From positions 1 through 64,000 of the forward strand of contig JAUWGP010000012.1 in assembly GCA_030606335.1 (NCBI GenBank): 64,000 nt of DNA, read 5' to 3'. This DNA is from Caldifarciminota bacterium (GTDB lineage: Bacteria > Hydrothermota > UBA3073). Below the pieces are notes generated by a model. It searched no databases. It saw nothing but the letters and a program-made list of their open reading frames with translations, and was not told where the DNA came from. Shown here piece by piece: positions 838 through 52,211 of this stretch (positions are counted from its first letter, which is position 1; the number at the start of each line of letters is the position of its first letter). A program made the position numbers and the translations under genes.

Positions 838-1292
838 ATGGATAAGCCGCATAAAAAATTGAAAACATGGCAAGAAGCTATGGAACTATGTATTAAAATA
901 TATAAAATTACAGAGAAATTCCCAAAGCATGAATTATATGGTCTTGTAAGTCAAATGAGAAGGGCTGCTGTATCGATACCTTGTAATACTTGCCCCGTTA
1001 AATAGTGCTTAAATATTGCTTAGATATTTTTAAAGTTTACCAGGATATGCAATTTAGATCGTTTATACGAAAGGATTATTTAACAGGGTAAAAGGGTGCA
1101 GCTCGAAGCTCTAAAAAGGAATCTGCACAATTTTATAACATTGCTCGAGCTTCATTAAGTGAATTAGATACACAAATTGAAATCGCAAATCGTTTAATGT
1201 ATACAAACGAAGATGTAAATAAAAATGTTGATGATTTAATGCTTAAAGTAGATCGACTTCTATACGGTTTATGGAGAAAAGTATCAAGTTAA
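838..1292 (+). pseudogene. Four-helix-bundle protein (TIGR02436/S23-like), interrupted by an inserted palindromic element
   Basis: An ATG at 838 follows the ribosome-binding site GGAGGGG. The first 49 codons read as the N-terminal half of the four-helix-bundle (23S rRNA intervening-sequence) family: a KTWQEAM start, then QMRRAAVSIPCN. The family normally continues with IAEGAAR. Instead about 105 bp intervenes and creates a TAG at 1003. The C-terminal half then resumes in another frame at about 1095 with GAARSSKKESAQFYNIARAS and runs to TAA at 1290-1292. Both halves are well preserved, so the disruption looks recent. The molecular role of this family is unknown. Family identity is from recognised sequence pattern; loss of function is inferred. 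Confidence 0.85.
988..1093 (+). mobile_element. Long palindromic element inserted in the four-helix-bundle gene
   Basis: The insert begins with TTGCCCCGTTAAATAG and ends with TTATTTAACAGGGTAAAA. The arms GTTAAATA and TATTTAAC are perfect inverted repeats flanked by CCC and GGG. Its ends have the same layout as the short palindromes in the spacers: CCC, arm, AATAG, then arm, GGG, TAAA. It encodes no protein. A few bases of the host gene around IAEG seem to be missing or replaced, so the exact borders are uncertain by several bases. Confidence 0.72.
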
Positions 1293-1376: not shown

Positions 1377-2993
1377 ATGTTATCTTGCTTTATAGTGCTT
1401 GTACTCAATGCGGTATTCATCCCGGTGGAGGCGGGAGTAAATGAGGTGATTGATGAGTTGAGGGTGAGAGGGGTGCCGGTGGTGAGATTTGTGAATATAT
1501 TACCATACAAGATGAGAGGGAAAGAGGAAATGTTAAATGTTAAATGTTTAATGTTAAATGTTGAATGTGAAATGTTAGATGTTGAATGTTTAATGTTTAA
1601 TGTTAAAGGAAAAAGGAGATGGGAAAAGACCACCCCACAAAGTCGCTTCGCTCCAACGGTGCAAGCAGACAACAGACCACCCCATAAAGTTGCTCCGCTC
1701 CAACGGGGCAAGCAGACCACAGACCGAAGAGAAGAGAGGATTGTTAGTGAAATGTTGATGGGGAGGTTGGATTATTTAGATATATCTAAGCCACAGGTGA
1801 GGTTTTATGTAACGGGAGAGGGAATTAGTGATACAGTTACAAGGTATTTTCAGGATGTTGGAGTTATTGCATCACTACCAGGACTTGATATCTATATACA
1901 ACCGTTTATCAGGTTGGGAGAGTCTGATGAATATCCTATCTTTTTCTGGCATGATATTATAGGTGGAGACTTTAGAAGGACATATGGTAGTTTAGAATTC
2001 AGGGGGTTAGATATTTTAATTGGGAGAGAACCTTTAAGATGGGGACCTCAGCCCGGGAATTCTTTTATTTTGTCTGGGACTTCTCCAGCATTTGACCTAA
2101 TCTATGCGTCTTATGAATACAAATTCTTCAAGGGGTCATTTTTCTGTACATCTTTAGAACCATACATCTTAGAAGAAACATTTGAGGCATGGTGGCGTAG
2201 AGAGACATTTCCAGCAGGAACCTATAAAAGATTCTTTTCAGGACACAGGCTCGATTTCTCACTTTTTGGTGATAAAGTTCTCATTGGCTTATCAGAGGTA
2301 ATTATGTATTCTGGAGAAGATATCAACTTCATTTCAGGTTACTTGAACCCTTTTAATTTCTATTGGGCACAGAAACGGAACAGGGGAAAGGGTGAATATG
2401 AAGATAACATAGGATGGGGGTTTGATTTCTCTTATTATATTAAAAATGGAATCTGTCTTTATGGAGAATTGTTTATAGATGATGCACAGTATGGTGAGAC
2501 TGAGGAGAATATTCCGAATATGCTTGCTTACAGGATAGGATTTAAGGGTGCAAGGCGTAAGAACTTCTGGACTATGCAGTATACGAGGGTCAATACTTGG
2601 ACGTACATACATCAATTCTACTGGAATGATTATTTGTTCCTTGGTTATCCTATTGGTCATCCAAAAGGTCAGGACTTTGATGAGATATATGGAAGACTTG
2701 TCCATCATTTAAACTATAACTGGGATATTACACTTGATTTTTGGTATACGAGGAAAGGGGAGAATAGTTTCGATAACCTTTGGCCTGGTGTCTTTCCTGA
2801 ACGTATAAAATTCCCATCTGGTGTCGTGGAGAGGTCGTTATTGGTTGAGGCGGGGGTGAGGTTCTTTAATTTACCCAGATTGTCGGTGGAGGTAGTAGGG
2901 GGGTATACGTGGATAGGGAACTATCGGAATGTAACCAACGAAAATAAATGGTTCCCAGCGGTGAGGGTCAGGGTTAGCTCTGTGATCTTTTAA
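1377..2993 (+). CDS. Wzi-like capsule assembly outer-membrane protein, with in-frame repeat insert
   Basis: The 538-residue product has an N-terminal signal peptide (residues 1 to about 19) and an aromatic-rich body typical of a beta-barrel. It carries the Wzi family hallmark GREPLRWGPQPGNS at about 217-229. Proteins of this family (PF14052) bind or help assemble surface polysaccharide at the outer membrane, which fits the sugar transferase upstream. The ATG at 1377 is the only sensible start, although no good ribosome-binding site is seen. Residues about 48-120 are foreign. They translate an intergenic word tract plus two copies of a CCCC...GGGG palindrome, kept in frame and without stops. 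The barrel resumes at about residue 122. Whether the insert is tolerated is not known, but the rest of the frame is intact. Confidence 0.82.
   Translation: MLSCFIVLVLNAVFIPVEAGVNEVIDELRVRGVPVVRFVNILPYKMRGKEEMLNVKCLMLNVECEMLDVECLMFNVKGKRRWEKTTPQSRFAPTVQADNRPPHKVAPLQRGKQTTDRREERIVSEMLMGRLDYLDISKPQVRFYVTGEGISDTVTRYFQDVGVIASLPGLDIYIQPFIRLGESDEYPIFFWHDIIGGDFRRTYGSLEFRGLDILIGREPLRWGPQPGNSFILSGTSPAFDLIYASYEYKFFKGSFFCTSLEPYILEETFEAWWRRETFPAGTYKRFFSGHRLDFSLFGDKVLIGLSEVIMYSGEDINFISGYLNPFNFYWAQKRNRGKGEYEDNIGWGFDFSYYIKNGICLYGELFIDDAQYGETEENIPNMLAYRIGFKGARRKNFWTMQYTRVNTWTYIHQFYWNDYLFLGYPIGHPKGQDFDEIYGRLVHHLNYNWDITLDFWYTRKGENSFDNLWPGVFPERIKFPSGVVERSLLVEAGVRFFNLPRLSVEVVGGYTWIGNYRNVTNENKWFPAVRVRVSSVIF
1518..1736 (+). 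repeat. Intergenic-type repeats inserted inside the Wzi-like gene
   Basis: The block contains an AATGTTA/G heptamer tract (about 1529-1606), followed by AGACCA-type words carrying two copies of the CCCCATAAAGT...CCAACGGGGCAAGC palindrome. Identical material is found in spacers at 19857-19950, 37400-37450 and 39330-39430. It is about 219 bp, a multiple of three, and free of stop codons in the gene's frame. Confidence 0.8.
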
Positions 2994-3453
2994 AAACTTA
3001 TTGCCCACGAAGGACACCCCGATATAGTCGTTCCTCCCTACGGGGCAGGCGAAGTTCACTAAATTAAAAAGATAGAAGATAAATTATAATAAAAGAACAA
3101 AAGAGTACCTACGAAGGACAGTAAAAATTTAACAAATGGCCCACGAAGGACACCCCGATACAGTCATTCTTCCCTACGGGGCAAGCGGAGTACACGAAAG
3201 ATACTATGTTAAAAAGAAATTAAAGAATAAAGAATTTAAAAAATTTCGTGGGTTTTGTGTATTTAGTGGGAGAAAAAAATTTTGTGGGAGAGAGATGGCC
3301 CACGAAGGACACCCCGATACGGTCGTTCCTCCCTACGGGGCAGGCGAAGTACACGAAAGATATAAATTAAAAAGAAATTAAAAGAATTAAAGAATTTTCG
3401 TGAGTTTAGTGCATTTCGTGGGGAAAAAGTCTTACCTTTAGTGGGAGGTATAT
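2994..3453 (+). repeat. CACGAAG word repeats with CCCCGATA...CTACGGGGCAGGC palindromes
   Basis: Repeated modules start GCCCACGAAGGACAC and end GTATTTAGTGGG or CATTTCGTGGGG, so each module has inverted ends (CCCACGAA / TTCGTGGG). Palindrome copies of about 34 bp sit at 3017-3050, 3153-3186 and 3312-3345, each inserted right after GGACAC. Open frames across this area only translate the repeats and are not genes. Confidence 0.75.
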
Positions 3454-3828: not shown

Positions 3829-4162
3829 AGAATTGCCCACGAAGGACACGAAGATCACTAAATTAAAAGGAATATTGCCCACGAAGGACACGAAAATCAC
3901 TAAAATAAGTAAATAGAAAATAAATTATAATAAAAGAACAAAAGAGGACCTACGAGAGACATAGAGAATTAAAGAATTGCCCACGAAGGACACGAAGTTC
4001 ACGAAAGATATAAATTAAAAAGAAAAAGAATTATAAACACTTAGTGGATTTCGTATATTTAGTGGGAAAAGAATTTTGTAGGAGAGAGATGGCCCACGAA
4101 GGACACCCCGATACGGTCATTCTTCCCTACGGGGCAGGCGGAGTACACTAAGTAAAAAGATA
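3829..4162 (+). repeat. CACGAAG repeats, empty and filled copies
   Basis: Copies at about 3835, 3876 and 3978 read GCCCACGAAGGACACGAA without a palindrome. The copy at 4091 carries one (4105-4139). These empty sites define where the element enters in the filled copies. No gene is seen. Confidence 0.75.
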
Positions 4163-4558
4163 ATGAGAATAAATAAGAATTTTCGTGGATTTCGTGAATT
4201 TCGTGGGGGAAAATTGTCTATTATCTTTGGTTTAATATCTGCGGCTTATATTGCCCTAATTTTCATTCTTTCTGGTATTCCCAGTCAGATTGAATTAATA
4301 AGTAAGTTTAATCCGCTTAGTCTGCTGCATATCCCATTATATGGTTTATTAACATTTTTTCTTATACGCACCTTCTGGAGAAAGGGAAAAAAGTCATTAA
4401 TCCTTGCAATTTTTATTGCTCTTTTAGTAGCGGTTTTTGACGAGTTGAATCAGATTCATATACCAGGAAGAATGGCATCAGGATGGGATGTGGTGATGGA
4501 TGCGGTGGGGATAGGAGGGATGGCGCTGTTATGCGTAAGGCGTAGAGCGTCCCAGTGA
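4163..4558 (+). CDS. VanZ-like small membrane protein with repeat-derived ends
   Basis: A protein of about 131 residues with several hydrophobic segments (about 18-37, 50-68, 76-90 and 108-125). It shows the VanZ-family pattern of a conserved acidic/Asn motif (FDELNQIHIPGR) before the last helix. Family members are integral membrane proteins of mostly unknown role. The first 17 residues are the translated TTTCGTGGATTTCGTG word repeat, and the last eight are the GCGTAAGGCGTAGAGCG repeat. A TTG at 4214, 4 bp after GGGGG, is an attractive alternative start that would remove the repeat-derived N terminus. The gene lies in a repeat-rich, degraded area. Confidence 0.65.
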   Translation: MRINKNFRGFREFRGGKLSIIFGLISAAYIALIFILSGIPSQIELISKFNPLSLLHIPLYGLLTFFLIRTFWRKGKKSLILAIFIALLVAVFDELNQIHIPGRMASGWDVVMDAVGIGGMALLCVRRRASQ

Positions 4559-4622
4559 AATATGCTTCCCGACGAAATAGTTAGACAATTCACGGGACAA
4601 GTCGCATTTCACGGGATAAATA
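4551..4622 (+). mobile_element. Palindrome within palindrome (filled site)
   Basis: The outer element is split into CCCAGTGAAATATGCTT (4551-4567) and CGCATTTCACGGGATAAAT (from 4603). Between them lies a complete 35-bp element, 4568-4602, from CCCGACGAAATAG to CACGGGACAAGT. The same outer element is uninterrupted at 22550-22586, so the insertion point is defined to within a base. Confidence 0.85.
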
Positions 4623-5096: not shown

Positions 5097-5220
5097 GCCC
5101 ACGAAGGACACTAAGTTCACGAAATATATAAATTAAAAAGAAAAAGAATTAAAAACACTTCGTGCATTCCGTGTATTTCGTGGGGAAAGTTTTTTTGTCT
5201 TTAGTGGGAGAAAGTCTTCG
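5097..5220 (+). repeat. CACGAA module with inverted ends
   Basis: The left end GCCCACGAAGGACACTAAG and the right end GTGTATTTCGTGGGG are inverted repeats about 75 bp apart around an A-rich centre. A further TTTAGTGGGAGAAAG follows. It could fold into a hairpin in RNA or single-stranded DNA. It has the same layout as the modules at 2994-4162. Confidence 0.6.
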
Positions 5221-5263: not shown

Positions 5264-5313
5264 TACAATGTAATTTTGTCAAGGAGATAGTAACTCAGTA
5301 GGAGGAAAATTTT

Positions 5314-5400: not shown

Positions 5401-6507
5401 ATGAAAAATCCCTTCAAATATGGTGAAACTGTAAGTGGTGAATACTTCACCGACAGGAAGAAAGAGATAAGGGATATAACTGAGTGTATTAAGGCTTCTC
5501 AGAATATGTTCATTTACTCCTACAGGCGGATGGGCAAGACATCACTAATTAAAAATGTCCTGTCTCTGTTTAAAGACAAGATAACTCCCATTTATATAGA
5601 CTTGGAAAAGTCGCCGACCATAAATCACTTTCTTAAGGATTATTCTGCTTCAATAAGTCAGCATTTTCTTGGCACAAAGGAGAGATTGAAGGAGATCGCC
5701 TCTTTCTTCAAGCGAGTTATTCCAAGTTTTGAACTTTCAGAGGGAAGATGGAAGGTGTCTTTTGACTTTTCAAGAACCACAGCAGGTATTGAAAAGGCGC
5801 TGGATGAGGTGATTGAAATACCCCAAAAGATTGCAGAAAGGTACAAAAGGCATGTTGTCGTGGTTTTTGATGAGTTTCAGGAGATAGAGCAATATAATGG
5901 TAAAGTATTTGAGAAGAGGTTAAGAGCGTCTATTCAGCATCAGAATGATGTATGTTATATCTTTATAGGTAGTAAGACCCATATAATTCTTAATATGTTT
6001 ACCAATCCTGAGCGGGCGTTTTTCAGGTCTGCTATGGTTTATCCCCTTGATTATATCCCGGATAATGAACTAGTAGAATTTATACAAGGTCGTTTCGGTT
6101 CAACGGGCAAAGCTGTTTCTGAATCATCAGCAAAAAGGATTGTTCAACTCTCTAACAGAAGTCCCTATCATATACAACTACTTTGTTTCCATATTTGGTT
6201 AGTAAGTGGAAAGAAGATTGACGAAACACAGATTGATAAGGCACTTGACGAGGTTTTGAGCGCTCAGAATGAGTTGTATTACAGTTGGTATGATTCGCTC
6301 TCGTTGTATCAGAAGGCCGTCCTTTTGGCACTTTCGCAGGAGAGGGAGATATTTTCCCAGGATGTAATACTGACCTATGGTTTGAAAAATCCCTCTACAA
6401 CCCAGGCATCGGTGAAGGCACTGTTGAGGAATAATCGGATTATAAAGACAAAAGAGGGATATGACATCTTCGATCCATTCTTTAAGTTATGGCTGATGAA
6501 GAGATAA
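5401..6507 (+). CDS. P-loop ATPase, archaeal-ATPase-like (COG1672 type)
   Basis: This 368-residue protein opens with a nucleotide-binding domain. The P-loop at about 41-48 is the non-classical YRRMGKTS seen in this family, and Walker B is VVVVFDEFQ at about 152-160. A C-terminal part (about 275-368) looks like a winged-helix segment. Members are single-domain ATPases common in archaea and some bacteria, and their substrate is mostly unknown. The ATG at 5401 has no ribosome-binding site but lies 36 bp after a good -10 box. The gene has its own double promoter and a palindromic operator candidate. It stands alone between repeat-rich spacers, consistent with accessory status. Confidence 0.85.
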   Translation: MKNPFKYGETVSGEYFTDRKKEIRDITECIKASQNMFIYSYRRMGKTSLIKNVLSLFKDKITPIYIDLEKSPTINHFLKDYSASISQHFLGTKERLKEIASFFKRVIPSFELSEGRWKVSFDFSRTTAGIEKALDEVIEIPQKIAERYKRHVVVVFDEFQEIEQYNGKVFEKRLRASIQHQNDVCYIFIGSKTHIILNMFTNPERAFFRSAMVYPLDYIPDNELVEFIQGRFGSTGKAVSESSAKRIVQLSNRSPYHIQLLCFHIWLVSGKKIDETQIDKALDEVLSAQNELYYSWYDSLSLYQKAVLLALSQEREIFSQDVILTYGLKNPSTTQASVKALLRNNRIIKTKEGYDIFDPFFKLWLMKR

Positions 6508-6861
6508 GGGCCCACGAAGGAGATAGAGGGAAAAGACTGCAGACAGCAGACATCAGACGACAGACTAACTGAAAATGACTAATTATTAATTTCTAATTTC
6601 TAATTAAATCCTAATTTCCAAATGCAAAAGGAGAAAGGGTATAGCGTCCCAGTGGAATAGATACTTAATTCCACCACGATGTAATATAAAAAAACTAATT
6701 ACATATGGCAAGCCCCGTACGCTATCGCTACAGGACAAGCACCCGATGAAATAGATACTCATTTCACGGGGCAAGCGGGATAAATAAGGCAAATGACCCT
6801 GATGAAATAGCTTACGAGTTCGCATTTCACAGGGCAAACAAATGTCAAATGACTAAAAGAA
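6508..6861. other. Repeat-filled spacer between convergent genes
   Basis: It contains AGACAGC and CTAATTT word tracts, the large nested palindrome at 6648-6786 and a simple palindrome at 6797-6839 (CCCTGATGAAATAG ... CATTTCACAGGGCAAAC). No gene is seen. Confidence 0.65.
6648..6786 (+). mobile_element. Composite of an outer palindrome holding three inserted palindromes
   Basis: The outer element runs from CCCAGTGGAATAG to GGGATAAAT. Inside it are, in order, a CCACGATGTAAT...ATTACATATGGCAAG element (6674-6712), a CCCCGTACG...CTACAGGACAAGC element (6713-6740), and a CCCGATGAAATAG...CATTTCACGGGGCAAGC element (6742-6776). Each also occurs elsewhere in the window in a different host. Confidence 0.8.
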
Positions 6862-8537: not shown

Positions 8538-9377
8538 TTGTTAGTTCTTTTTTTAACAGAGACTCTTAAGGGACTATATCTTTATTTAAAAGGCTTATTT
8601 AATAGGGACTCGGACGAGACTTTATCCTTATTTTAAAAGACTAATTATAACAGGGACTTGGATGAGACTTTATCCTTATTTAAAAAGACTTTTTTAACAG
8701 GGACTTGGAAGAGACTCGTAAGAGACTATATCTTTATTTAAAAAGACTTTTTTAACAGGGACTTGGAAGAGACTTTTAAGAGACTACATCCTTATTTAAA
8801 AAGACTTAATTAACAGGGACTTGTACGAGACTTTTAAGAGACTACATCCTTATTTAAAAAGGCTTAATTCACAGGGACTTGTACGAGACTTTTAAGAGAC
8901 TACATCCTTATTTAAAAAGACTTTTTTAACAGGGACTTGGAAGAGACTCGTAAGAGACTTTATCCTTATTTTAAAAGACTAATTATAACAGGGACTTGGA
9001 TGAGACTTTATCATTATTTAAAAGACTTAATTAACAGGGACTTGGACGAGACTCGTAAGAGACTATATCTTTATTTAAAAAGACTTTTTTAACAGGGACT
9101 TGGGAGAGACTTTTAAGAGACTATATCTTTATTTAAAAGACTTAATTAACAGGGACTTGGATGAGACTTTATCCTTATTTAAAAGGCTTAATTAACAGGG
9201 ACTTGAACGAGACTTTTAAGAGACTATATCTTTATTTAAAAAGACTTAATTAACAGGGATTTATAAGGGACTTGTACGAGACTATATCCTTGTTTAAAAA
9301 GACTTTTTTAACAGGGACTTGGAAGAGACTTTTTATTTCAAAAGACTAATTATAACAGGGACTTGTACGAGACTATA
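8538..9377 (+). repeat. Tandem degenerate array R1, part 1 (about 15 units)
   Basis: Units of roughly 45-65 bp read AACAGGGACTTGGAAGAGAC, then a short variable stretch often containing CTCTTAAGAG (a perfect palindrome), then ACTATATCCTTATTTAAAAA, then GACTT. Units differ by single-base changes and loss of the middle part. It ends directly at the GxxExxY gene and lies upstream of the barrel gene at 6862-8523. There are no unique spacers, so it is not CRISPR. Confidence 0.85.
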
Positions 9378-9391
9378 CATATTTTGATTCA

Positions 9392-9802
9392 TTAATCAAG
9401 TCTCAACCCACTCTTTTCTATTTCATAAAAATTATCAAACCTTTTAAATTTCACTTCCTTTTTGCTAAAGTTTACAAGAAACCCAATTAGTATTTTACTT
9501 ACTCGCAGCTGTGATATTATCTGTGCTTTATGGTCTTCACAAAATCCCTGTACTACTTTAACTTCAACTATAATTTTATGCTCTATTAACAAGTCAGGTA
9601 CGTACTTACTAACTTTCTGAGTCTCGTATATAACAGGAAATTCTTTTTCAGAATCAACTTTAAAATATTTACTTAATTCAATTAAAAGAGCGTTGTGATA
9701 AGCTTTTTCTAACAAGCCTGGACCAAGAGAATCATGAACCTTGTAGAATGACTTAATGATTTTATCAGTGATGGGTCTATATTTAGAATCGTCCCATTTC
9801 AT
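9392..9802 (-). CDS. GxxExxY family protein (copy 2)
   Basis: This 136-residue protein carries the family signature at residues 29-35 (GLLEKAY), then Pro-Asp at 69-70 and E-x-K at 80-82 (IIVEVK). The last two match PD-(D/E)XK nuclease motifs even better than copy 1. The ATG follows AGGAGG. The gene lies inside the R1 array, with repeat units starting within about 15-20 bp of both its ends. The sequence is well diverged from copy 1, so the two copies were not made by a recent local duplication. Function is unknown; a link with the surrounding repeats is a hypothesis from location. Confidence 0.85.
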   Translation of the reverse strand: MKWDDSKYRPITDKIIKSFYKVHDSLGPGLLEKAYHNALLIELSKYFKVDSEKEFPVIYETQKVSKYVPDLLIEHKIIVEVKVVQGFCEDHKAQIISQLRVSKILIGFLVNFSKKEVKFKRFDNFYEIEKSGLRLD

Positions 9803-9810
9803 ATTCCTCC

Positions 9811-10313
9811 TTTGACAGGAATTTTTAAAAGGCTTATTTAACAGGGACTTGGAAGAGACTCGTAAGAGACTTTATCTTTATTTAAAAGGCTTATTTAACA
9901 GGGACTTGTACGAGACTTTTAAGAGACTACATCCTTATTTAAAAAGGCTTAATTCACAGGGACTTGGAAGAGACTTTTAAGAGACTACATCCTTATTTAA
10001 AAAGACTTTTTTAACAGGGACTTGGAAGAGACTCGTAAGAGACTTTATCCTTATTTTAAAGACCTATTTAACAGGGACTTGTAAGAGACTCTTAAGAGAC
10101 TATATCTTTATTTAAAAAGGCTTAGTTAACAGGGACTTGGAATTTACGATTTTAGATTTCTTTAGTGACCAATGACAAATGACTTTTAACTTAACAGGGA
10201 TTTGGACGAGACTTTATCTTTATTTAAAAAACCTAATTAACAGGGACTTGTAAGAGACTCTTAAGAGACTATATCTTTATTTAAAAGACTTAATTAACTG
10301 GGACTTGGAATTG
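9811..10313 (+). repeat. Tandem degenerate array R1, part 2 (about 9 units)
   Basis: The same unit as in 8538-9377 continues on the other side of the GxxExxY gene. Around 10145-10195 one unit is broken by TTTACGATTTTAG and CAATGACAAATGAC words, showing that word tracts and R1 units mix. Confidence 0.83.
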
Positions 10314-10314
10314 A

Positions 10315-10420
10315 CCCCGATGAAATAGATACCCTGTTGAATAGCTCTGCTTCCACAGGGCAGGCTACATTTAACCATAATGTAATAAAGTGAAACATTA
10401 CACATGGCAAGTAGGGTAAA
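10315..10420 (+). mobile_element. Nested palindrome composite (two inner elements)
   Basis: The outer element runs CCCCGATGAAATAGATA ... GGGTAAA. It contains a CCCTGTTGAATAG...CCACAGGGCAGG element (10332-10364) and a CCATAATGTAAT...ATTACACATGGCAAG element (10375-10411). Confidence 0.82.
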
Positions 10421-11492: not shown

Positions 11493-11527
11493 CCCCGTTG
11501 AAATAGATACTCATTTCACGGGGCAAG
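11493..11527 (+). mobile_element. Simple (empty) palindrome inside AGACCA words
   Basis: CCCCGTTGAAATAGATACTC, then CATTTCACGGGGCAAG. It serves as the empty counterpart of the filled copies at 10315, 11806 and 13867. It sits immediately upstream of the barrel gene start. Confidence 0.8.
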
Positions 11528-11709
11528 CAGACTAAAGGAAAAAGGATAAAGGATAAATTACTAATTGCTCTAATTTCTAATGCCTAATTAAATCCCAATG
11601 TCCAATGACTAATTTCTAATGACAAAAGGAAAAGACATTAGACTACAGACCGCAGACCAGTAAATAGTAAGCACTATGGACTAGGAAGTAGGCACTATTC
11701 AAAAAGACT

Positions 11710-11795: not shown

Positions 11796-11805
11796 AATCA
11801 ATTGA

Positions 11806-11874
11806 CCCCGATGAAATAGATACCCTGTTGAATAGCTCTGCTTCCACAGGGCAGGCTACATTTCACGGGGCAAG
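11806..11874 (+). mobile_element. Nested palindrome, one inner element
   Basis: CCCCGATGAAATAGATA, then the 33-bp CCCTGTTGAATAG...CAGGGCAGG element (11823-11855), then CTACATTTCACGGGGCAAG. Removing the inner element leaves a sequence that differs by one base from the empty element at 11493. Confidence 0.85.
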
Positions 11875-11932
11875 TATGGCGAGTAGGGTAAACTAATAAC
11901 GAATAACAAATAACGGTTGATTGATTTGGGTG

Positions 11933-13837: not shown

Positions 13838-13960
13838 CCCTGTACGCTATCACTACAGGACAGGCACCCGATGAAATAGATACCCTGTTGAATAGCTCTG
13901 CTTCCACAGGGCAGGCTACATTTCACCCTGTACGCTATGCTACAGGACAAGCGGGGCAAG
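13838..13960 (+). mobile_element. Palindrome composite with two inner elements beside a third
   Basis: A CCCTGTACGC...TACAGGACAGG element (13838-13865) is followed by CCCGATGAAATAGATA (13867). That outer element holds the 33-bp CCCTGTTGAATAG element (13883-13915) and a second CCCTGTACGC...TACAGGACAAG element (from 13926), and is closed by CGGGGCAAG. Confidence 0.83.
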
Positions 13961-18030: not shown

Positions 18031-18072
18031 CCCTGATGAAATAGCTTACGAGTTCGCATTTCACAGGGTAAA
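18031..18072 (+). mobile_element. Palindrome in the pyrG leader
   Basis: CCCTGATGAAATAGCTTACG ... CGCATTTCACAGGGTAAA. Arms TGAAAT and ATTTCA pair. Removing it would restore the words TATTGA CTAATGAC. Near-identical copies lie at 6797, 45441 and, inverted, 20126. Confidence 0.8.
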
Positions 18073-18172
18073 CTAATGACTAATAATGAATGTCTAATTA
18101 CTAATGAAGGATTAAGATTGATAAAGAAGTAGCGAGTAGTGAGTAGGGAGAAAAAGAAAAAGGATAAAAATT

Positions 18173-19855: not shown

Positions 19856-20755
19856 GACCACCCCATAAAGTCGCTCCGCTCCAACAGGGCAAGCAGACAT
19901 CAGACCACAGACCACCCCATAAAGTCGCTTCACTCCAACGGGGCAAGCAGACCACCCCATACTATTCGCCAAATGCCCTATGGTCTATTGTTATTGGTTA
20001 TTGGTTAATTGTTATTTGTCACCAAGCCACTAAGACAAAAAGTATTTAAAAAATTATATATATTTAAAAAATCAGTTATTGAGTATACCCGGTTTACTCA
20101 ATTCATTGAGTTATTCGTTAATCGTTTACCCTGTGAAATGTGAACTTGTGAACTATTTCATCGGGGTCAATCTTCATTCGTTCTGATTGAATAATAAACA
20201 TTCCATAGGATAAATCATTGAGTAATTGTGTTGTAGAGACGACACGGTTTATTGAGTCCCAGTGAAATATGCTTTGCATTTCACCATGAACACTATCGTT
20301 ACATGGCAAGCGGGATAAATTTATTGGGTTTATTGGGTTCATTATGTTTATTTGGTTTATTTAGAAATTAGAAATTAGAAATTATTCGTTATTCTGTGTT
20401 CTGTTGTCTCTAATTAGTAATTTGTCATTAGAAATTAGTCATTCTCCCCTCTTCTCCCTTTCCCCTTGGTCTGTAGTCTGTGGTCTGCTTGCCCTGTTGC
20501 TCCAAAGGAGCTATACGGGGTAGTCTGCGGTCTTTTTCTTCTATCATTTTGCATTGCTAATTGCTAATTTTGCATTGTTAATTGACTTCTCTACCCCTAC
20601 CCTCCTTTTATCTTCCCCCTAAAAAATTATTTTAGTGTTATTTTTTTCAGTTTTTTAACGTAAAAGTTGGCTAGTAAACAAATAAGGTGGAAATTAGCCA
20701 TTAAGACCATTTTGAAAAAATTCTATAAATGGGTAAATTTTCTTTATTTTTTTCC
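19856..20755. other. Repeat-filled spacer between pyrG and mraZ
   Basis: It holds two CCCCATAAAGT...CCAACGGGGCAAGC palindromes (19861-19893, 19916-19946) in AGACCAC words. Also present are TTGGTTATTGG words, inverted palindromes at 20126-20167 and 20488-20520, a nested palindrome at 20258-20320, GGTTTATTGGGTTTATT words and inverted GTCTGTGGTCT words. From about 20620 the sequence is plain AT-rich. No gene is seen. Confidence 0.65.
20258..20320 (+). mobile_element. Palindrome within palindrome (second filled site of the same outer type)
   Basis: The outer element CCCAGTGAAATATGCTT ... GCATTTCA | CGGGATAAAT is split by CCATGAACAC...GTTACATGGCAAG (20284-20310). The insertion is at the base of the right arm, a different position from that in the copy at 4551. 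Confidence 0.83.
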
Positions 20756-22549: not shown

Positions 22550-22586
22550 CCCAGTGAAATATGCTTCGCATTTCACGGGATAAATA
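22550..22586 (+). mobile_element. Empty reference copy of the CCCAGTGAAAT palindrome
   Basis: CCCAGTGAAATATGCTT joins CGCATTTCACGGGATAAAT directly. Arms GTGAAAT and ATTTCAC pair. It lies in GCGTAGG words and shows the uninterrupted form of the copies at 4551 and 20258. Confidence 0.85.
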
Positions 22587-22641: not shown

Positions 22642-22770
22642 CCCTGATGAAATAGATATTCATTTCACCATAATGTAATAAAGTGAAACATTACACATGG
22701 CAAGCAGGGCAGGCTACATTTCACCATAATGTAATAAAGTGAAACATTACACATGGCAAACAGGGTAAAC
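22642..22770 (+). mobile_element. Rearranged nested palindrome with two identical inner elements
   Basis: CCCTGATGAAATAG ... CATTTCA is followed by a CCATAATGTAAT...ACATGGCAAG element (22668-22704) and CAGGGCAGG. Then comes CTACATTTCA with a second copy (22724-22760) and CAGGGTAAA. One left arm serves two right arms, suggesting recombination between copies. Confidence 0.78.
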
Positions 22771-45286: not shown

Positions 45287-45390
45287 GTCTTAAAATTTTT
45301 TGGGGGAGTATCGGGGTCAGGCTAAGAGATAAGAGATAATTACTAGACATTTAATCAAAAAGGTAATAATAAGTGACCCCGCCAAATGAC

Positions 45391-45419: not shown

Positions 45420-45740
45420 TGTTCTGGAAATGACTATTGACCCTGATGAAATAGCTCACAAGTTCGCATTTCACAGGGTAAACGATTGAAGATTAAGTTA
45501 ATTAGTTCATTGGTTGAATAGTTAAATGTTAGATGTAAAATTTGTAATGTTGAATTCGAAACGGAGAATCGGTGAAAGGGAGAAACGGAGATATGGGGAA
45601 AGTACCGAGTATCCAGTCCCGATGGAATAGTTTAAACATTCAACGGGATAAATAGTAAGTAGCGAGTAGGATGAATCAATGACTCGAAGATACAAAGACC
45701 TATAAAAATAAACGTTTATAAAGTTATTGGAGGGTTTTTT
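45420..45740 (+). repeat. secA leader with two palindromes and word tracts
   Basis: A CCCTGATGAAATAG...CATTTCACAGGGTAAA palindrome (45441-45482), AATGTTA words, GAGAAACGG words and a CCCGATGGAATAG...CATTCAACGGGATAAAT palindrome (45618-45653) fill the 320-base leader. No conserved SecM-like leader frame is seen. Confidence 0.7.
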
Positions 45741-51987: not shown

Positions 51988-52142
51988 CCCTGATGAAATA
52001 GATGCCCTGTTGAATAGCTCTGCTTCCACAGGGCAGGCTACATTTCACCATAATGTAATAAAGTGAAACATTACACATGGCAAGCAGGGCAGGCCACGAT
52101 GTAATATGAAAAAACTAATTACATATGGCAAGCAGGATAAAT
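51988..52142 (+). mobile_element. Largest palindrome composite (three inner elements)
   Basis: CCCTGATGAAATAGATG is followed by the 33-bp CCCTGTTGAATAG element (52005-52037), CTACATTTCA, a CCATAATGTAAT...ACATGGCAAG element (52048-52084) and CAGGGCAGG. Then come a CCACGATGTAAT...ATTACATATGGCAAG element (52094-52132) and CAGGATAAAT. Confidence 0.83.
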
Positions 52143-52149
52143 AGAGCGT

Positions 52150-52211
52150 CCCGATAGAATAGCTGCGCATTCTACCCCGTACATTGTTACTACAGGGCAG
52201 GCGGGATAAAT
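52150..52211 (+). mobile_element. Palindrome within palindrome (third filled site of the GGGATAAAT type)
   Basis: CCCGATAGAATAGCTGCGCA ... TTCTA is split from CGGGATAAAT by a CCCCGTACATTG...TACAGGGCAGG element (about 52175-52201). It enters at the base of the right arm, as in 20258-20320. Confidence 0.8.

What the first reader, a model, noticed from the sequence alone, without database searches (positions are those of the whole stretch)
4551..4622. Short palindromic elements that insert into each other, read directly from filled and empty sites
The outer element is intact at 22550-22586 and split at 4551-4622 by a complete 35-bp palindrome (4568-4602) with no other change. Across the window at least ten sequence types share one layout: CCC, left arm, often AATAG, loop, right arm, GGG, then a tail such as CAAGC, CAGGC, TAAAC or ATAAAT. 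Known relatives in spirit are REP elements moved by RAYT transposases, Rickettsia palindromic elements, and yeast mitochondrial GC clusters. The nesting and the common ends across unrelated arms suggest one unknown mobilising activity. No transposase is in the window.
Basis: partly seen in the sequence, partly recalled or inferred. Interest (0 to 1): 0.85.

Follow-up and report, generated by a model that had tools for sequence, protein, structure and literature searches.

The report
Nested mobile DNA hairpins in bacteria
Tiny hairpin-shaped DNA pieces, 27 to 36 letters long, have jumped around the genome of an uncultured WOR-3 bacterium and very often landed precisely inside one another, like Russian dolls; the pattern suggests movement as single-stranded DNA, but the enzyme that moves them has not been found.

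Summary
The 36-bp element at 22550-22585 recurs at 4551-4621, split by a precise 35-bp insert (4569-4603). Across 2.21 Mb of this WOR-3 genome plus 0.36 Mb of a sister genome (about 97% identical in genes), 69 of 184 catalogued hairpin copies have an empty-site counterpart, against 1-9 for excisions shifted by 6-11 bp. Two exact insertions distinguish collinear loci of the two genomes. A copy in the same intergenic interval as the 'intact' window element carries four nested inserts in the sister genome. Four tail classes (ATAAAT, CAAGC/CAGGC, ACAAGTC, TAAAC), each with its own short 5' target, share one bulged hairpin with compensatory base changes. There is no target duplication. About half of the host hairpins are occupied, always on one arm (27/52 versus 0/39). 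Conserved bases lie 5' of both junctions, which is the logic of Y1/HUH single-strand transposition. However, no Y1 gene examined carries these ends, the tails are not the GTAG/CGTC tags of REPs, and no guide was identified. Best reading: REP-sized, single-hairpin, non-autonomous elements moved by a Y1-like single-strand activity supplied elsewhere. Mobility is shown; the enzyme is inferred. New variant of a known kind.

The parts
22550..22585 (+). alpha element, empty: CCC...GGG-ATAAAT inserted after GCGT in a heptamer array
   Evidence: a copy in the same intergenic interval of the sister genome carries four inserts
4551..4621 (+). alpha element with its loop occupied
4569..4603 (+). gamma insert (tail ACAAGTC) after CTTC in the alpha loop
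   Evidence: the same site is filled in L012, L030, L043, L044, L161 and L171
20258..20320 (+). alpha element occupied at the 3' stem foot: beta insert 20285-20311 between TTTCAC and GGGATAAAT
   Evidence: empty counterparts in L007, L005 and L017
6648..6785 (+). alpha element with three beta-class inserts in tandem (6675-6713, 6714-6740, 6741-6776) between TTCCAC and GGGATAAAT
   Evidence: L014 holds two of the three and L005:352 none
52150..52211 (+). alpha element occupied by one CAGGC-tailed insert (52176-52202)
   Evidence: empty copies at L029:10237 and L146
52572..52607 (-). alpha element, empty, on the minus strand
45618..45653 (+). alpha element, empty
18031..18073 (+). delta element (tail TAAAC) after TTGA(C) in a heptamer array
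45441..45483 (+). delta element (tail TAAAC)
20123..20172 (-). delta-type element on the minus strand
11805..11875 (+). GATGAAATAG hairpin whose loop holds the 33-bp insert CCTGTTGAATAG...CAGGC at 11824-11856; the same nesting occurs at 10333-10365, 13884-13916 and 52006-52038
   Evidence: empty hairpins at 6741-6776 and 11493-11528
22642..22769 (+). delta-type hairpin occupied by CCAT...ATGG elements (22669-22705, 22725-22761)
3018..3050 (+). beta-class insert at GGACAC^GAAG inside a CCCACGAAGGACAC repeat; further copies at 3154-3186, 3313-3345 and 4107-4139; empty repeats at 3979-4007 and 5097-5124

Best explanation
These are non-autonomous mobile elements that each consist of one imperfect hairpin (27-36 bp, GC-rich foot, bulge, conserved AATAG at the loop) plus a 3' tail of 4-7 nt. 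Shown: each inserts precisely, without target duplication, just 3' of a short sequence on one strand (GT for alpha, CAC or GC for beta, CTTC for gamma, GAC/GC for delta), and other hairpins of the same superfamily are favourite targets, at the loop or the 3' stem foot. Inferred: movement is by a Y1/HUH-type, single-strand, strand-specific cut-and-rejoin reaction. The folded strand would be recognised through the hairpin, the tail would act as the right cleavage site and the 5' target as the left cleavage site, and the enzyme would be supplied in trans. Hairpins exposed as single strands, for example during replication, would be natural landing pads, which would explain the nesting.
For: Empty/filled pairs: 69/184 versus 1-9 for excisions shifted by 6-11 bp. 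Strain polymorphism: exact 36-bp and 35-bp insertions at collinear loci, and a multiply occupied copy in the interval of the window element. No target duplication: one class has a T-ending left flank and a G-ending tail with an exact empty site (L197:4134; L214:16614). Conserved bases lie 5' of both junctions while the right flank varies, as for C_L and C_R of IS200/IS605 elements (PMC6006769). One-arm insertion: CARGC^GGGATAAAT filled 27 versus empty 25, against 0 filled of 39 on the opposite arm that also offers TTYCAC (Fisher 5e-9; sister genome 13/23 versus 0/19; the single raw hit is a coding coincidence). Hairpin under constraint with a conserved bulge, as Y1 enzymes require (PMC8266576). 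An element's own tail can serve as the next target (CAAGC^CATG...). Y1 genes occur in all 20 genomes with two or more element hits and in 27 of 29 with any, versus 63 of 121 without (Fisher 3e-5).
Against: No Y1 gene among the 5 in this genome or those examined in eight relatives is flanked by these ends. No guide tetranucleotide 5' of the hairpin was identified: the same hairpin occurs with different tails and targets. The opposite-arm target has an extra T, so the arm asymmetry may partly reflect sequence. The Y1 association is confounded by phylogeny and genome size. About 9% of this genome was not read and it is estimated 90% complete.
Confidence: 0.55

Rival explanations
1. Ordinary REP elements moved by a RAYT (TnpA_REP) whose tag has changed from GTAG to YTTR (CTTG, TTTA or CCTG, reading the element on the other strand, where the tail becomes a 5' foot).
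For: Size, hairpin with bulge, tag 0-1 nt from the stem, and mostly intergenic location: 81 of 108 copies outside ORFs of 150 aa or more, although such ORFs cover 80% of the genome. Two RAYT-like genes are present.
Against: The RAYT-like genes here are flanked by their own hairpins (GTAGGGACAGGG..., GGTGGCACAGGC...), not these. In that orientation the conserved bases would lie 3' of the left junction, contrary to the known cleavage logic. GTAG and CGTC are the tags described (PMC3733652).
Confidence: 0.2
2. Miniature elements of a conventional DDE transposase with a 1-2 bp target duplication (T, C or AC).
For: Left flank and tail often share their last one or two bases.
Against: The tail is constant within a class while the left flank varies: ATAAAC after TGAC, AAC and GTT, and GCGAG after T with an exact empty site. 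A duplication would make the two covary.
Confidence: 0.05
3. RNA-mediated spread: the hairpin RNA is reverse-transcribed or reverse-spliced into DNA, as proposed for yeast mitochondrial GC clusters.
For: Strand-specific orientation, fixed 5' target, hairpin conservation; proposed for GC42 in PMC4478555.
Against: No Rfam family matched apart from a tRNA. No reverse-transcriptase association was found, and none was searched for.
Confidence: 0.12
4. Mobility driven by the abundant PD-(D/E)XK (GxxExxY, PF13366) genes that sit among these repeats.
For: 13 copies in this genome and 19 in the sister genome; two lie in the window next to arrays.
Against: G020, with 14 element hits, has none; G112 also has none; and G059, with 25, has only a marginal hit (E 4e-4). 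The association is weaker than for Y1.
Confidence: 0.05
5. No active insertion: the nests are ancestral and some copies lost the inner parts by precise deletion, or the differences are assembly errors.
For: Precise excision is possible for single-strand elements, so some empty sites may be excisions.
Against: Elements also sit in unrelated arrays whose repeat phase is restored on removal; two independent assemblies agree on the flanks; the same insert occurs in many unrelated flanks.
Confidence: 0.03

Closest known systems
REP elements with TnpA_REP/RAYT (PMC3733652, PMC8266576, PMC6006769)
   Same: 20-40 bp intergenic imperfect hairpin with a short unpaired tag; proposed non-autonomous single-strand mobility
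   Different: Tag is ATAAAT, CAAGC, ACAAGTC or TAAAC rather than GTAG/CGTC; no flanking Y1 gene found; systematic nesting and many exact empty sites
IS200/IS605 elements and PATEs (Haloquadratum, PMC3119063)
   Same: No target duplication; fixed short 5' target; conserved 3' terminal oligonucleotide; subterminal palindromes
   Different: A single hairpin spanning the whole element, 27-36 bp versus 52 bp or more with two palindromes; no IS with these ends found
SMR-A small mobile repeats of Haloquadratum (PMC3119063)
   Same: Transposase-free, no target duplication, insert into the palindromes of other mobile elements, enzyme unknown
   Different: About 110 bp with terminal inverted repeats; here the elements are far smaller and belong to the same superfamily as their hosts
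Yeast mitochondrial GC clusters (PMC4478555)
   Same: Short GC-rich hairpins, strain-polymorphic, merging into composite clusters, mechanism unknown
   Different: Flanked by AG/ACT direct repeats; organellar; unrelated in sequence
TIRYT Y1 transposases, subclass 2.1 (PMC6006769)
   Same: Present in this genome; for subclass 2.1 no REP-like partner is known
   Different: Their ends (GGGGTCAGGCT...AGCCTGACCCC) do not resemble these elements

Membership tests
REP (RAYT-associated) | GTAG/GTGG or CGTC tag at the hairpin foot | tested here: not met
   Tails are ATAAAT, CAAGC/CAGGC, ACAAGTC, TAAAC; tag definitions from PMC3733652 and PMC6006769
REP (RAYT-associated) | Y1 gene flanked by copies of the same repeat | tested here: not met
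   5 Y1 genes here and about 25 readable loci in relatives carry other ends; not every Y1 locus could be read
REP (RAYT-associated) | 20-40 bp imperfect, mostly intergenic palindrome in many copies | tested here: met
IS200/IS605 derivative (PATE) | No target duplication; conserved left target and conserved 3' end on one strand | tested here: met
IS200/IS605 derivative (PATE) | Two subterminal palindromes | tested here: not met
   One hairpin per element
IS200/IS605 derivative (PATE) | Guide tetranucleotide 5' of the hairpin pairing with the cleavage sites | tested here: inconclusive
   Compared by eye across classes sharing one hairpin; no consistent guide found
IS200/IS605 derivative (PATE) | Cleavage by a Y1 transposase | not testable with these tools
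   Needs biochemistry
Conventional MITE (DDE) | Target-site duplication | tested here: not met
   Exact zero-duplication pair
SMR-A | About 110 bp with terminal inverted repeats, inserting in palindromes of other elements | tested here: not met
   Insertion behaviour matches, size and structure do not

The most novel reading that the evidence does not exclude
A separate superfamily of minimal, single-hairpin mobile elements in WOR-3 and some other phyla, in which one hairpin core is combined with interchangeable 3' tails that go with different short targets. They would be moved by an enzyme not yet linked to any REP, possibly the partnerless TIRYT subclass of Y1 enzymes, and would use each other's folded single strands as preferred landing pads.
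Probability: 0.35. Interest if true: 0.85.

Novelty: new variant of a known kind. Interest (0 to 1): 0.72.

Why it matters
How REP-like hairpins spread is an open question, because clean empty sites are hard to find in the models. Here dozens of exact empty/filled pairs, strain polymorphism and up to four levels of nesting give insertion order, exact ends and target for 27-36 bp elements straight from sequence. That makes the single-strand hypothesis directly testable with short oligonucleotides and a handful of candidate Y1 proteins. The tail and target changing together on a constant hairpin is a natural experiment on target choice.

Tried and rejected
A perfect-arm CCC...GGG scan found almost nothing: the stems are bulged. 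The tail-directed scan at low stringency was noisy (812 real versus 528 reversed-sequence matches), so only dense stems were kept. Rfam: only a tRNA. Y2 (IS91) transposase: no match, but the controls did not ring, so absence is not shown. PD-(D/E)XK as mobiliser: G020 argues against it. Orientation versus GC skew: alpha 28:11 and delta 15:2 along positive skew, beta even; confounded because the target arrays are themselves strand-biased, so not used. A guide code of the IS608 type was looked for by eye without success. An automated peel test found 17 excisions that reveal an outer element versus a mean of 3.5 for shifted ones; it is weak because one pass cannot handle deep nests. The sister-genome copy of 22550-22585 aligns well on the right flank, but its left flank lies in a rearranged heptamer array, so its orthology is very probable, not certain. 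One viral contig matched and was not followed. Paper searches found no description of these elements; only open-access text was searched.

Full report
Setting. The window is contig C57 of a 2.43-Mb draft genome (59 contigs, 90% complete) that belongs with WOR-3: its closest relative, G001, has a contig of the same length (43,312) as one named 'candidate division WOR-3 bacterium RS_17_14'. The window carries the cell-wall/division cluster and ordinary housekeeping genes, but almost every intergenic stretch is packed with 7-, 8- and 9-bp arrays and short hairpins.

The observation. The element at 22550-22585 and its split copy at 4551-4621 are as described, apart from coordinates off by one. The 35-bp insert at 4569-4603 is exact. 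It is a decayed member of a family (ACAAGTC tail) that sits at the same loop position, CTTC^GCATTTCAC, in at least six other host elements, and not a perfect palindrome.

Catalogue. I fetched 2.21 Mb of this genome and 0.36 Mb of G001. Clustering copies with different flanks defines the ends. alpha: CCC...GGG-ATAAAT, after GT. beta: CC...GG-CAAGC, CAGGC, ACAAGC or ACAGGC, after CAC or after another element's GC. gamma: GG-ACAAGTC, after CTTC. delta: GGG-TAAAC or ATAAAC, after GAC or GC. A further class ends in GCGAG after AGCT. Reversed-sequence controls give few matches for the main classes (alpha 50 versus 2, beta 34 versus 2, delta 32 versus 6). Members of alpha, beta, gamma and delta share one hairpin: CC(C/T), a bulged A, TGAAAT-like arm, AATAG, variable loop, complementary arm, GGG. 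Over 35 distinct sequences 97% of stem cells pair, with compensatory changes at 4 of 9 pairs and at most 51% pairing when the partner is slid.

Mobility. Removing each catalogued element and looking for the joined flanks (28 nt, up to 3 mismatches) finds an empty site for 69 of 184, 48 of them outside simple arrays. Between G000 and G001, collinear at roughly 95-98%, a 36-bp and a 35-bp element are present in one and absent in the other with 25-bp matching flanks. In the interval that holds the window's empty alpha element, G001 has an alpha element with the same right flank. It carries a gamma insert in its loop and, at the 3' foot, a beta insert followed by a second beta insert that itself contains a third. 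Some loci are nested three to four deep (L018:6958-7060, L017- near 5650).

Rules of insertion. No target duplication: in the GCGAG class the flank ends in T and the tail in G with an exact empty site. Where one or two bases are shared, the tail stays constant while the left flank varies, so the tail belongs to the element. Conserved bases are 5' of the left junction and at the 3' end of the element; the right flank is free. Occupancy is high: in G000 the alpha 3' foot is filled 27 times and empty 25, and the alpha loop filled 12 and empty 7. The opposite arm of the same alpha hosts also offers TTYCAC, on the other strand and followed by an extra T, yet is never filled (0 of 39; 0 of 19 in G001).

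Mechanism. These rules (folded hairpin with a bulge, one strand only, recognised bases 5' of both cuts, no duplication, own tail reusable as a target) match Y1/HUH single-strand transposition as described for IS200/IS605 and TnpA_REP (PMC6006769, PMC8266576). This step is inferred. Five Y1 genes exist in this genome. C51 and C53 (and probably C28) have GGGGTCAGGCT...TGACCCC-like ends, the TIRYT subclass for which no REP-like partner is known (PMC6006769). The other two have their own GTAG-type or GGTGGCACAGG hairpins. Y1 loci of eight relatives likewise carry other ends. Across 150 relatives Y1 genes occur in 27 of 29 genomes with the alpha/beta/delta right-end pattern against 63 of 121 without, including every genome with two or more hits. 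That is supportive, but confounded by ancestry. PD-(D/E)XK genes fit worse.

Distribution. The same right-end pattern occurs in 29 of 150 relatives, with 0-1 matches per genome for the reversed control. Named contigs of WOR-3, Cloacimonadota and Deltaproteobacteria carry the core.

Comparison. In size and look these are REP-like, but the tag is not GTAG/CGTC and no flanking Y1 gene was found. In insertion logic they are IS605/PATE-like, but with a single hairpin. In nesting they resemble the SMR-A repeats of Haloquadratum, which insert into the palindromes of PATEs by an unknown mechanism (PMC3119063), at about a third of the size. I therefore file them as a new variant of a known kind and not as members of any of these families.

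Limits. About 9% of the genome was unread. G000 and G001 counts are partly the same loci and not independent. Empty sites inside arrays are weaker evidence than the 48 outside them. Whether some empty sites are excisions cannot be told. The enzyme and the guide are unknown.

Noticed in passing
window 838-1291: A 23S rRNA-intervening-sequence protein gene (PF05635) is interrupted after codon 51 by a hairpin of about 100 bp (993-1088, CCCCGTTAAATAG...TTTAACAGGG) that brings in an in-frame stop; the second half of the gene reads on downstream.
   Followed up: partly
window 1528-1725: A heptamer array (AAATGTT) and two CAAGC-tailed hairpins lie inside the 5' part of a 538-aa ORF and are read in frame (MLNVKCLMLNVEC..., HKVAPLQRGKQ), reminiscent of Rickettsia palindromic elements inside genes.
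   Followed up: no
window 45312-45344: Remnant of a TIRYT-type Y1 transposase end (GGGGTCAGGCTAAGAGATAAGAGATAATTACT), nearly identical to the left end of the intact copy on contig C53.
   Followed up: partly
L212:11675, L205:981, L214:6895, L211:18123, L215:11165: A second class of very small palindromes (19-21 bp, CCTGCCTGCCGGTAGGCAGG-like) is also precisely present or absent between the two sister genomes.
   Followed up: no
window 8552-9384 and 9823-10310: Long arrays of 46-58 bp units (AACAGGGACTTGGAAGAGACT...) flank a PD-(D/E)XK (PF13366) gene at 9392-9802; 13 such genes occur in the genome.
   Followed up: partly
L202 near 5200: In the sister genome a beta element (CCCCGATATAGTCGTTC^CTCCCTACGGGGCAGGC) is split by a 36-bp hairpin with tail ATAAAC (CCCATTAAATATTGCTTCGCATTTAACGGGATAAAC); empty copies are in the window at 3018 and 3313.
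   Followed up: partly
L217 (IMGVR_UViG_3300030433_001006) 5281-5307: One viral-collection contig carries the GATGAAATAG...ATTTCACRGGG core; it may be a host fragment.
   Followed up: no
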